From Hirudinaria manillensis (Eukaryota; Annelida; Clitellata; Hirudinida; Hirudinidae): 64,000 nucleotides of DNA. Both the position numbers and the translations under genes were made by a program. Location of the stretch: positions 2,665,001 to 2,729,000 of the forward strand of contig CM067538.1 in assembly GCA_034509925.1 (NCBI GenBank), in the 5' to 3' direction. Below the pieces are notes generated by a model, which worked only from the letters and a program-made list of their open reading frames with translations, was not told the DNA's origin and ran no database searches. Below, in pieces: positions 19,201-25,200 of this stretch; position 1 is the stretch's first letter, and each line of letters begins with the position of its first letter.

Positions 19201-22200
19201 GATTGACTTTGGTTGATTACTAATCGTAATTAAACAGTACAAATTTGTAAGCACACAAACACACAAATGACCAATCATTAAGACAAACAAACAAATGAAA
19301 AAACATACAAATACACGGACATGCAACATTGTATACCTGTCTGTGTACACAAGTGCAAATACAAACATACAGACAGACAATAAACAAGACCAGAAATCCA
19401 AACACGTAAACATGCGAACAATCGACTGACAATATCATCATCAGCACTATAAGAGGACATATAGAAATAAATAAATAAATTAATTAATTAATTAAAAATT
19501 TAAAAAACACAGAGGGATTAAAAACGCTTCTCCATCTGTTTTGTCTTTCCAGGCAGACGGCTTTGTCGTTGGAACGTACAACATGGGCCTGACCAACCAC
19601 GTCCTCGTGGCAAACCAAACGAGGTCAGACGACGGTTTTGAACACAAAGTGGTCTTCGTTAGGGTCGATGCCAACGCCTCCCTGTGGCTCGATGGTCGTG
19701 CACCTGTTCGCCTGAACACTACAGGTGTTCCATCTTTTTTATTTCTTTTTTTTTATTGCAATTATATTTCACTTAATGGATCGACACTTACGAGCTCCTG
19801 TGCCGGGACGGAACTGTTATATTTTACATTAATTCTGTTTGATTGATCACATTAATTGATATTAATAATATAATAATTATTAATAATATATAATATAATA
19901 TTAATATTGAGTGACAAACCAATTTATTAACTAATTATAATATTAATTAATTAATTATAATATATTAGTCAGTAAATTAATTATTTATTTATTTTCATTT
20001 ACATGGAAATGGGATAATTACAGGCAATTATCTTCCTTTATTAAGAATTAAAAACGTTACTTTGTTAAATTTTAAATGTTTTAATAATAATAATAGTAAT
20101 ACTAATAATATAACAACAACATATAATAATAATATAATAAAGTATTAAGTTATAACATATTATGTTATATATTATTATTATTTTTATTATTATTTTTATT
20201 AATATTACTTATTATTCTTACCTACTATTATTTTTATTGACAGCAACACTATTAATCTTACTGTCTAGGAAATCTTTTTTGCCAAGAATTCATTCTGTCG
20301 AGAAAATATATTAGCTTTATATTTTTATACACTTGTTCGTTATTGAAGCCATGTAAATACAAATATAAATGACGCATTTTAAGAATTTTAAACTCAAAAT
20401 GTCAGGCCCTGGCTGGACGGACAGCATTTAGAAAATTGTTAAATTTTAAATTAAAAAAAAAAAGTATTTAAAAATGAAAGAGCTCTTTTCTTTAATATTT
20501 TCTTTTATTCGATGCATATTAAAATAAAAGACACGTTCTTCTGCAGTCTCAGATCTACGACGACCTTAACGATATGATGACGAAAACGATGACGATGACG
20601 ACGATGATGACTATGATGACGACGATGACGACGACGATGACGATGATGACGACGATGACGACGACGATGAGTTTGATGACGTCACTTGCAGGTTTTCAAC
20701 TGACGACGTTCAATCACCAGATGAAGGTCCAGGTTGGTGGCGCTGGTCTCCGTGGCATGGAAATCGTGAAACCATTCATTGGATCCATGACTGGTCAGCA
20801 GTTGTTACTGTTGTTGTTGTTGTTGTTGTTGTTGTCGTCGATGTTGCTGTTGATGTTGTTGTTGTTGTTGCTGCTGCTGCTGTTTTGCTGATGTTTTGTT
20901 GTTGTATACTATTCTCGTTTTCATTCTATTCATTATGATGTTCACTACCATTTTTTGCTTTTACTACCACTTGTTTTAGTTAGCTATTTATTTATTATTT
21001 TTAAGTTAGAGAATATAATGTACAATGTATAATAATGGATATAATAATAATAATTATAAAAATAATATTAATGGTAGGTGCTAGTCTTTTATATACGACA
21101 AAATCGTGTCAATCACCTAGTTCTTTCGACCAACATCTTGACATCATAAAAGCATTATCAATATCATCGCTGCCTTCATCATCATCATCATCATCATCGT
21201 CGTCGTCGTCATCATCATTACTACCACCGCCATCGTCGTCGTCGTCATCGTCGAAAGATCGGGCTTGGTTATGAGGCGACTTGTGGTGATGTAATGCAAA
21301 GGGCTGGACTTTAATAAGCAAAGGACTGACGTCTTGATGATGATGCCACTCACCCCACTCAGTCGTTACTTGCCGAGAAATTGGGCAGGATGAGACAGGG
21401 ACTTGTTTACGAGTTGAAATGTGCTCAAGGTCGTCAGAAAGGTCAATTTAAGTTCAACCAGTGCATAGATGGGTGATGATGGCGATGACGATGCTACTGC
21501 CGCTGACTATGATGACAATGATGACGATGATGACGATGATGGCATGATAACGATGACGTGATGGAATGACACAGTAATGGACCCCTCGAAGAAATCAATT
21601 GTCTGAGGAAGTGATGTTCAACAAAGCATCACAAATGCATCTTGACAGCTTTCCTTCGTCAGAGGGCGTCTTCAACTTCATCAGTCCATGTTGGCAGTTT
21701 AGAAACAGTTTTTCAAAAAACATTATAAAAGCCTTTCAAACGATCCTAAAATCGCTCAACGATTGACGAAAGTTGAGATGAATGAAGGAATAAATAAATA
21801 AATAAATAAAATAAATAAATTAATTAATTAATAAATTAATAAATTAAATAAAATGAATTTCCTGAAAATTTCCTGATTGCAGAATTTTGTCATTAGAAGA
21901 ATTTTGTTTTTCTTCTTCTTTTTTATTGGTCCTGAATGAATGAATGAATGAATCATTGATTTTCACATTTTAAGAATGTAAAGACCTATATATATTGTTG
22001 GATCCCTAGATCCAATAAATTGAAGAATAATTAAAATTATATTGCCGATTAATTAATTTAACAATTAATTAAATTTAGTGGCAATATAATTTGAGAATTA
22101 ATTGGTGCTATTCAGACTCTTTGGTTAGGAACCTTGACAAATGGATTTATCTCGGAAATCAGAGCGAGAATTAGAGAACAGCAGATTTCAAGACTTAATC

Positions 22201-25200
22201 AATTAAGCATCGTACATCTTCCAAGCCATCTGACAACTTTCAATAAACCTGACCTTCCATATTTAGTTTGAGGACCCCGGGTTATTACATTGGTGTCAGG
22301 AGTTGGATTTAGAGTTAAAGGGTGTCCAAGAGTAACTAAGGTAGAAGTTTGTTGGTTGAAAAGTGAAGGATGCCGAAATACTTGGATGAATTGTACGTGC
22401 CTCGATTGAGACAAGAATTGAGAGATCGTGGCCTGGATTGCAAAGGCACGAAAGCTGAGATACGAGAACGACTTGGGGCATGGCTGACAGAGAATGGCCA
22501 TGACCCGGAGGAATACGAATTCGAGTCTGAATATCGTAAGTTGCTGAGAGAATTAGCAGAGGATTTGAGGGAGTGTATTAGGAGTATTAGGGGCGATTTG
22601 AAAGGCACAGCGGTTCCGCGTCAGGATGCCTCTTTGGTTTCTGGTGGAAACTCTACTGAGAAGAGTTCTGATGTTCCAAGTACCGTTTCTGGCAGCATTG
22701 GGATGGAGTCATTAGAAGGCACATCCAACCACAGTGCGTGCGTGTCTCCAGAAACTCTGTGCGTGATGGCAGACTTAGAGAACTCGACGTTGGAGCCCAT
22801 AGAGTTACCAGATCAGGTCGAGTCGTCAGCAGGGCCCAGAGAGCTCACGGAGGTTTTAGTGGAGCAAGTTGAACTTTCGGAGGAGCCTGTGGGATTGCCG
22901 GTGGATCATGTGGAGTTGTTGGTGCAGCCCGAGGAGTTACTGATGAGTCACGTGGATTTGCCGGCGAAGCCCTTGAGATCAATTGGAACTGTGGAGTCTT
23001 CGGGGGTGTCCGCGGATCTACCAGCGGAGCCCATCGAATCAGCTAAGTCAGTGGAGCCTGCAGATGTTTCGGCTCCATTGGAGATCACAGAAGGGAGTGC
23101 TCGGGATTTCGAGACAATGCCTAGCATTGAGAGTGGAGCAGGTGATCCTGTAGAGAGTCTGAGATCTGGCGGCATGGTGGAGCAGGAGGTTGAGCATAGA
23201 AATGGCGATGTTCCGCGACTGAAACTTGCGGGACACAGAAGCAAAAGGGAGGCAATAGAAATCCCAGGAGATGGCAAGGCAAATGGATCCGGGATTCGCA
23301 GCCATGAGATTATTGGAAGACAATCGGATCCTATTCCGAGAGTAAAAATGAAAATGGGAATAGATGTCTGTTCGGGACGAACAGATTTAAGGAGGGGGCA
23401 GTGTTGGATCCCTAGATCCAATAAATTGAAGAATAATTAAAATTATATTGCCGATTAATTAATTTAACAATTAATAAAATTTAGTGGCAATATAATTTGA
23501 GAATTAATTAATTGGTGCTATTCAGACTCTTTGGTTAGGAACCTTGACAAATGGATTTATCTCGGAAAGCAGAGCGAGAGTTAGAGAACAGCAGATTTCA
23601 AGACTTAATCAATTAAGCATCGTACATCTTCCAAGCCATCTGACAACTTTCAATAAACCTGACCTTCTATAATTAGTTTGAGGACCCCGGGTTATTACAA
23701 TATATATATATATAGGTCTTTACAGAATTCTTAGAATGTGAAAATCAATGATTCATATATATATATATATATATATTAGTTATATATTAGTTAAATATTA
23801 GATATATTCAATATATATTGTATAATTTACATATATATTACATAATATCGAAATTATTTCTGAACCATGAAATATTTTCTCGAAGAAATAAAAGATTTGA
23901 ACAGTTCCTAATATACACCTTCTTCATGATTACCATGATCACTTTGGTCCTACTCCATTATCATCGCCTTACATTATCATCTTCATCGTCATCTTCATTA
24001 GCATCGTCATCATCATCATCATCATCATCATCGTCGTCGTCGTCACAATCTTCGTCTTTATTTTAGTTTTCTTAAGGCATTTCCAAACAGAGATTAAATC
24101 TCTTTTTTTTATATTTCGTTTTTCAATTTTTTTAAAATTATTTTTTGAGCAATTTATTTCAAAAATAATTTAATTAATAATTTTTTTACTTTTATTCACG
24201 ACACGTGACAATGTCACGTGTAGATTAAATTAAACACTGCAAATTACGATTAAAATGTTTATTGAATATAAAAAATCATGAATATTTACATCGAGGACAC
24301 TGTATAAACTGCAATAATAATAATAATAATAATAATAATAATAATAATGATAATAATAATAATAATAATAATAATAATAATAATAATAATAATAATAATA
24401 ATAATAATAATAATAATAATAATAATAATAATAATGGCTACAGGCAGGTGCATAATATCATATCATGTCAAAGGCATCCATGCATAATTATAATCTAATT
24501 AATAATTAATTACTTGGAAATATCGACGATAATTGGAACAATTTCCTACTCAGCCCTTTCAAGAACTTATCGACAGCATCTTCGAAATGCAAATTGGAAG
24601 ACGCCTGTCTGTCTTTCTCCTCTTCATCATCGTCGTCGTCGTCGTCATCATCATCATCATCATCACCACCATCAACACGTTGCCATCGTATATGTATCGT
24701 CATTGATGTCAATTTAAGTAAAATAAGATGATAATTGCATTGAAAATATATTCGACTTATTTATTTATTTATTTATTTATTTTTTCATTTGTTCCTTTTT
24801 TTTCGTGGAAATATTACCACAAGTGAAACGTTTAAATGATGGACCACCTCAAAATGGATGAACAACTTGTGCATGGAAAAGTCAATTCAGGATTTGGAAA
24901 CAATCCACTGCTTAACTGTATTCTCGCATTTTCAATCATCAATCAGTTTGGATTTCAATCAATCGACGGTTTCAATCAATCAAGATCTTATTCTAGAAGT
25001 TACACGCAGAATACGTTATCACTTTATCACAGTTTTATATTGAATATAATGTTGATATTAATTGAATTATTTAATAATTTTTGCAATAATCGATTTTAAA
25101 AACAACATCCTTCATCGTACGTGAATAATTTATGCTAATGATTTCATCATAATACAATTATAATAATTATTATTCATTCGCAGGCCTCTCATGGAATGGT

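What the first reader, a model, noticed from the sequence alone, without database searches (positions are those of the whole stretch)
21996..23699. Small LTR retroelement whose only protein is a SAP-domain ORF
Complete LTR architecture (TG..CA LTRs, tRNA-Leu-type primer site, polypurine tract), but the interior codes only for a 356-residue protein with an N-terminal SAP DNA-binding motif and degenerate VELxxxPxEL repeats. Non-autonomous LTR elements normally lack an ORF or keep gag. A SAP domain in this position could act in targeting AT-rich DNA or chromatin.
Basis: partly seen in the sequence, partly recalled or inferred. Interest (0 to 1): 0.75.

Follow-up and report, generated by a model that had tools for sequence, protein, structure and literature searches.

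The report
Parasitic retrotransposon keeping only Gag's SAP
A short, many-copy jumping element in an animal genome has lost its enzymes and capsid but keeps one small DNA-binding-type piece of its capsid protein, apparently because selection favours keeping it, which raises the question of what an element that borrows another's machinery needs that piece for.

Summary
Window 21996-23699 is a complete 1.7-kb LTR element (294/298-bp LTRs, PBS matching the host's tRNA-Leu(CAG), PPT, target duplication). Its one long ORF (356 aa) starts with a SAP domain and has no capsid, zinc-knuckle or pol match. The 3' junction occurs 318 times in the genome. Of 34 two-LTR copies kept, 30 keep the SAP ORF, 22 have identical LTRs, and 32 have exact 4-bp TSDs, all NTAN, 18 ATAT.

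The SAP is not foreign: longer copies carry it at the N-terminus of a Ty3/gypsy-type Gag-Pol with the same LTR ends, PBS and 3' hairpin/PPT block. The element is an internally deleted derivative, probably mobilised in trans. The ORF's conserved C-terminus reads that cis block out of the pol frame.

Across 39 distinct ORFs the SAP segment shows purifying selection (omega 0.31, p 3.6e-6; wrong-frame and LTR controls do not), though a simpler count gave p 0.084 and indels are not in multiples of three. A second SAP-only set in other genomes resembles its own Gag. AT-rich targeting by SAP is not supported. New variant of a known kind.

The parts
21992..21995 (.). target-site duplication, left copy (ATAT, inside a TA run, exact length ambiguous)
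21996..22289 (+). 5' LTR, TGTTGGATCC...GGGTTATTACA
   Evidence: at least 40 high-scoring places genome-wide (the cap)
22291..22309 (+). primer-binding site, complementary to tRNA-Leu(CAG) 3' end plus CCA, one mismatch in 19
22370..23440 (+). SAP ORF, 356 aa plus stop; ends 39 bases inside the 3' LTR
   Evidence: 30 of 34 two-LTR copies keep it
22388..22474 (+). SAP domain (residues 7-35), homologous to the N-terminus of Gag in the longer elements (residues 2-78: 55% identical to L002)
22793..22972 (+). degenerate VELxxxPxEL-type acidic repeats; no match to Gag or Pol pieces
   Evidence: sequence
23366..23386 (+). hairpin (9-bp stem, GGA loop) just before the PPT, shared with the Gag-Pol elements; read by the ORF as CSGRTD..
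23389..23401 (+). polypurine tract AAGGAGGGGGCAG
   Evidence: 33 of 34 copies end with it
23402..23699 (+). 3' LTR
23700..23703 (.). target-site duplication, right copy (ATAT)

Best explanation
The element is a non-autonomous, internally deleted derivative of Ty3/gypsy-type LTR retrotransposons whose Gag begins with a SAP domain. It keeps the LTRs, PBS, 3' hairpin and PPT (shown) and is copied and integrated by proteins supplied in trans by a SAP-Gag-Pol element of the same genome (inferred from shared termini, PBS, 3' block and target site). It still encodes the SAP module of Gag, and that protein segment is under purifying selection within the SAP-only family (shown, with caveats). Most likely the SAP-only protein acts as a detached Gag N-terminus that binds nucleic acid, holding the element's own RNA or cDNA in the nucleus or on chromatin, or improving its share of the partner's particles (inferred; not tested).
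For: Gag-Pol copies: N-terminal pieces read in 12 copies show SAP, coiled coil and capsid-type sequence; L002 has Pfam SAP, CCHC and retropepsin, and its 3' piece L070 has RNase H, Integrase_H2C2, rve and Integrase_p58_C in that order; the two pieces are in one frame by coordinates. Shared with the short element: LTR start TGTTGGATCCCT and ACCCCGGGTTA..ACA-type end, PBS TTGGTGTCAGGAGT, the 33-nt hairpin/PPT block (33 of 33 nt in L070, first 31 in L071 and L072), and 4-bp TSDs ATAT, TTAT, ATAT in the three copies checked. LTR pairs of these Gag-Pol copies are 99.5-100% identical, those of 22 of 34 short copies fully identical, so both were recently mobile. Selection: codon-model omega for SAP 0.31 (2dlnL 21.5, p 3.6e-6), whole ORF without tail 0.70 (p 4e-5); wrong frames and LTR show no purifying signal. 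SAP-only and Gag SAP are 58-70% identical in protein while synonymous differences are near saturation. A second SAP-only set in other genomes has 11 of 18 proteins with SAP plus the same [12 protein letters not shown] tail, and resembles its own Gag (P0001 vs P0017 76% over 191 aa) more than the window's family.
Against: No partner with closely matching LTRs was read: the Gag-Pol families seen are only 57-73% identical in SAP and share only LTR ends; the one longer relative with 92% LTR identity (L069) has its interior withheld and shows only one LTR in the fetched stretch. Indels in the ORF are not biased to multiples of three (15 of 41). A cruder unique-change count gives omega 0.45 for SAP with p 0.084. 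SAP selection could be borrowed by recombination with Gag-Pol copies. The middle and C-terminal part of the ORF is weakly constrained (0.7 and 0.85, the latter p 0.21). No evidence of expression was available.
Confidence: 0.6

Rival explanations
1. The ORF is a passenger: the element is a plain deleted derivative mobilised in trans, and the open frame persists because copies are young and because the 5' part is refreshed by template switching with Gag-Pol relatives that are themselves under selection.
For: 22 of 34 copies have identical LTRs; ORF indels not in multiples of three; 2 of the 4 copies with a broken frame also have identical LTRs and the other 2 one mismatch each, so broken copies did transpose recently or broke since; in-frame 156-bp repeats and mosaic interiors suggest recombination.
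Against: SAP omega 0.31 within the SAP-only family with controls near or above 1; SAP is more constrained than the rest of the ORF; a similar SAP-only design exists in a second set of genomes.
Confidence: 0.25
2. What is selected is an open frame spanning the RNA (for example to avoid decay of an RNA with a long 3' untranslated part, or spacing for packaging), not the SAP protein.
For: The ORF spans nearly all of the interior and passes the pol stop by reading the 3' block in another frame, in this family and in 12 of 18 database relatives.
Against: Predicts even, weak constraint; the data show constraint concentrated in SAP. One intact copy (L076) ends before the PPT in the pol frame.
Confidence: 0.08
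3. The SAP-only protein is a dominant-negative or copy-number regulator that interferes with full Gag, as Ty1 p22 (a C-terminal Gag fragment) does in yeast.
For: It is a Gag fragment under selection; precedent p22 (PMC4599808, abstract start in search listing).
Against: It lacks the capsid part through which p22 acts (mechanism of p22 from the listing); an element living off its partner gains little from blocking it.
Confidence: 0.05
4. One reading: SAP directs integration to AT-rich DNA.
For: TSDs ATAT in 18 of 32; A/T in 88-97% of copies at the bases two and three outside the TSD on both sides.
Against: Flank A+T over 26+26 bases (74.3%) does not exceed that around TA sites of the window (79.7-80.8%); palindromic ATAT, TATA and CGCG preferences are described for Drosophila errantiviruses (passages of PMC5408687), which to my knowledge have no SAP.
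Confidence: 0.05

Closest known systems
SAP-Gag Ty3/gypsy-type elements (same genome; also an uncharacterised Biomphalaria glabrata protein, P0020)
   Same: SAP at the Gag N-terminus followed by coiled coil; same LTR ends, PBS, hairpin/PPT and target preference in the same-genome copies; P0020 has SAP, capsid-type region and CCHC
   Different: the window element has no capsid, CCHC, protease, RT, RNase H or integrase match
TR-GAG elements (plant LTR elements with a single Gag ORF)
   Same: LTRs with a single Gag-derived ORF; mobility in trans shown for one Arabidopsis TR-GAG (passages of PMC8704663)
   Different: TR-GAG keeps the full Gag (562 aa in that example); here only the SAP module remains and capsid and CCHC are missing
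TRIM/LARD and Culex non-autonomous LTR elements
   Same: non-autonomous elements with LTRs, PBS and PPT; tandem repeats inside in Culex (passages of PMC3286476)
   Different: those lack coding sequence; here the ORF is kept and partly under selection
Foamy virus Gag chromatin tether
   Same: a Gag terminus that binds chromatin and influences integration is a working model for a nucleic-acid-binding Gag end (abstract starts of PMC12125541 and PMC6042332 in the listing)
   Different: unrelated motif; no chromatin binding was tested here
Ty1 p22
   Same: a Gag fragment acting on its own (listing)
   Different: C-terminal half of Gag made from an internal transcript; here the N-terminal SAP encoded by a separate, smaller element

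Membership tests
LTR retrotransposon | two LTRs with TG..CA ends and a TSD | tested here: met
   window copy and 32 of 34 kept copies with exact 4-bp TSD
LTR retrotransposon | tRNA primer site and polypurine tract | tested here: met
   PBS in 34 of 34, PPT in 33 of 34; tRNA-Leu(CAG)
Autonomous Ty3/gypsy element | Gag capsid, protease, RT, RNase H, integrase | tested here: not met
   no such Pfam match at E<=10 in the window ORF
Non-autonomous derivative of SAP-Gag Ty3/gypsy-type elements | shares cis sequences and retained coding segment with Gag-Pol elements of the genome | tested here: met
Non-autonomous derivative of SAP-Gag Ty3/gypsy-type elements | mobilised in trans by that partner | not testable with these tools
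   only indirect: same TSD type and recent copies of both; closest long relative is withheld
TR-GAG | complete Gag ORF | tested here: not met
   SAP only
TRIM/LARD | no coding capacity (as given in passages of PMC3286476) | tested here: not met
   356-aa ORF kept in 30 of 34 copies, with purifying selection on SAP
SAP domain | Pfam PF02037 over the curated cut-off | tested here: met
   33.3 bits against 23.9; weak PDB matches to solved SAP domains, E 0.00097 and 0.0051
SAP domain | binds AT-rich DNA | not testable with these tools
   no assay; predicted fold of low confidence, two helices in the SAP region

The most novel reading that the evidence does not exclude
A class of LTR parasites that has reduced Gag to one detached SAP module: the element gives up capsid and enzymes, uses a partner's particle, and keeps a nucleic-acid-binding protein that favours its own RNA or cDNA. 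The design was reached more than once, since the SAP-only set in other genomes carries a SAP close to its own Gag.
Probability: 0.3. Interest if true: 0.7.

Novelty: new variant of a known kind. Interest (0 to 1): 0.5.

Why it matters
Non-autonomous LTR elements are usually thought to need only cis sequences, or to keep a whole Gag. Here a many-copy, recently active family keeps one small Gag module with a measurable selection signal, next to Gag-Pol relatives in the same genome. That makes the question of why a retrotransposon parasite keeps a protein testable, and draws attention to a SAP-bearing Gag architecture (also present in a mollusc protein annotated only as uncharacterised) for which I found no description in the papers searched.

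Tried and rejected
Considered and rejected: SAP as a captured host gene (it is the Gag N-terminus); the conserved ORF C-terminus as a protein motif (it is the hairpin/PPT block, read one base out of the pol frame; omega of the tail about 1.3, p 1); AT-rich targeting; plasmid relatives (no match); Rfam RNA families in the window (none). The open frame of 1779 aa listed for C1:13697032 is not evidence of a full Gag-Pol: it runs through withheld Ns. The predicted structure is of low confidence (mean pLDDT 42) and was not used for a fold search. Pairing of C12:603566 joins LTRs of different insertions (no TSD, ORF 86 aa) and was dropped from the 35, leaving 34. The 34 copies come from the best-scoring hits of capped searches and are not a random sample; the 10 extra copies were chosen by me for long frames, and 40 full ORFs (39 distinct) entered the selection tests, 4 broken copies being left out.

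Full report
What is there. Window 21996-23699 holds two LTRs of 294 and 298 bases (5 mismatches in 294 aligned bases, one 4-base indel), a PBS, an 80-base leader, an ORF of 356 aa and a PPT. The PBS is complementary to the 3' end of a tRNA-Leu(CAG) gene of the same genome, with one mismatch in 19 in the window copy. The genome (G000) has 148 Mb in 23 contigs and is unnamed. The window carries a laminin-G match at 2276-2623 and an EGF match near 14130-14291; the fragments look neurexin-like to me (recalled, not tested). No further laminin-G match lies in the window, so I cannot say that the element sits in an intron.

How many copies. The PPT-LTR junction with up to 2 mismatches occurs 318 times (152 forward, 166 reverse) and 0 times reversed. 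A search with the first 87 residues scored 150 of 719 candidates; 145 of these 150 have no stop inside the match. From loci brought in I extracted 35 two-LTR units and dropped one mis-paired unit. Of the 34 kept: 30 have a SAP-starting ORF of at least 340 aa; 22 have LTR pairs without mismatch or gap; 32 have an exact 4-base TSD, all 32 with central TA, 18 of them ATAT. In the window ATAT makes up 1.3% and NTAN 10% of 4-mers. The window copy, with 1.7% LTR divergence, is older than most of these. Ten further copies chosen for long frames all have ORFs of 345-448 aa. Lengths differ partly by in-frame repeats of about 156 bases.

Where SAP comes from. Searching the genome for Pfam SAP scored 150 of 513 candidates. 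Twelve longer copies whose 5' parts I read (L002, L006, L007, L008, L083-L090) begin with SAP, followed by a coiled-coil-like region and capsid-type sequence. In L002 Pfam finds SAP (E 6e-12), CCHC and a retropepsin; its 3' piece L070 has RNase H, Integrase_H2C2, rve and Integrase_p58_C in that order, the Ty3/gypsy order. By coordinates the two pieces lie in one frame, about 1651 codons apart from start to end; about 559 codons between them were not read. LTR pairs of three such copies are 99.5-100% identical over 219-226 bases. They share with the short element the LTR start TGTTGGATCCCT, a similar LTR end, the PBS TTGGTGTCAGGAGT and the 3' block CTGTTCGGGACGAACAGATTTAAGGAGGGGGCA (33 of 33 bases in L070, the first 31 in L071 and L072), and have TSDs ATAT, TTAT and ATAT. 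The rest of their LTRs is not alike. Two Gag-Pol families are visible, with SAPs 57-63% identical to each other. Related proteins elsewhere include P0022 (SAP, Retrotrans_gag, CCHC) and P0020 of Biomphalaria glabrata (SAP, CCHC). SAP at the Gag N-terminus is thus a broader feature.

The ORF's ends. Window ORF residues 2-78 match L002 Gag at 55%; no other part matches the Gag or Pol pieces convincingly. The C-terminal [12 protein letters not shown] is the shared hairpin/PPT block. In L070 the pol frame reads it as PVRDEQI-stop; the SAP ORF reads it one base over, passes the pol stop and ends in the LTR. The hairpin folds with a 9-bp stem at -10.5 kcal/mol, z -3.3, and is exact in 33 of 34 copies; of the ten further copies nine have it and L076 does not. 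Its conservation is therefore best read as cis, not protein.

Selection. For 39 distinct full ORFs, pairwise pN/pS is 0.29 in SAP and 0.60 for the ORF without the tail. A count of unique changes gives omega 0.45 in SAP (p 0.084) and 0.79 overall (p 0.041). Codon models on a fixed tree give 0.31 in SAP (p 3.6e-6) and 0.70 overall (p 4e-5); SAP in frames +1 and +2 gives 3.38 (p 0.00095, in the other direction) and 1.11, the whole ORF 1.09 and 1.07, the LTR 0.81, 1.59 (p 0.068) and 1.20. The middle gives about 0.7 (p 8e-4) and the C part about 0.85 (p 0.21). Against protein selection: indels in the interior are multiples of three in 15 of 41, as chance gives (LTR 0 of 14, leader 0 of 3). The tests assume one tree, and copies recombine, so p values are optimistic.

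Other genomes. A search with the ORF found 2 proteins, with an alignment 18. Of these 18, 12 end with [12 protein letters not shown] and a short tail, and 11 of the 12 also start with a SAP-like segment; two (P0017, P0018) are Gag pieces with the capsid-type sequence. P0001 (SAP-only) and P0017 (Gag) are 76% identical over 191 residues. In a tree of 33 distinct SAP segments this set, Gag included, forms one group (support 0.996) apart from the window's family. Either SAP-only elements arose at least twice or their 5' ends are exchanged with Gag-Pol relatives. The sources are unnamed, and I could not check that they share one genome.

Targeting. Flanks outside the TSD are 74.3% A+T, against 68.7% for random places and 79.7-80.8% around TA and ATAT sites in the window. 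Positions two and three bases outside the TSD are A/T in 88-97% of copies on both sides. This looks like a short palindromic preference, of the kind described for errantiviruses (passages of PMC5408687), and gives no sign of SAP-driven AT-rich targeting. The control is one 64-kb window only.

Literature. Searches for SAP domain with retrotransposon and Gag (4 papers, none on this by title), non-autonomous LTR retrotransposon (0), gypsy (0) and Acinus and PIAS (one paper with that term, on LINE-1, by title) found no description of SAP-Gag or of SAP-only elements in the held open-access library. Subscription papers and repeat libraries were not searched.

Verdict. A real, recently active, non-autonomous family: a new variant of Gag-fragment-keeping LTR elements. 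Trans-mobilisation is well supported by anatomy but the closest partner was not seen; selection on SAP is supported with caveats; its job is inference.

Noticed in passing
G000 C1:5585510-5629422 (outside the window; L091 is one unit): 76 matches to a tRNA-Leu(CAG) 3' end at about 585-base spacing, a 44-kb tandem array; ARAGORN confirms tRNA-Leu(CAG) in the one unit read.
   Followed up: partly
window 2276-2623 and 14130-14291: Laminin-G and EGF exons on the + strand upstream of the element.
   Followed up: partly
window 1631-2331, 12327-14135, 34518-35180: Very long simple-repeat arrays that read as PTNQ, poly-N/I/Y/L and LTHS open frames.
   Followed up: no
L076 (C3:713950-716300): A copy without the hairpin's first arm whose ORF ends GIDEQI-stop in the pol frame; LTR pair 98.3% identical.
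   Followed up: no
L069 (C1:13690900-13698500): Relative with 92% LTR and 84% leader/SAP identity; 5000 bases of its interior are withheld and no second LTR is seen in the stretch.
   Followed up: no
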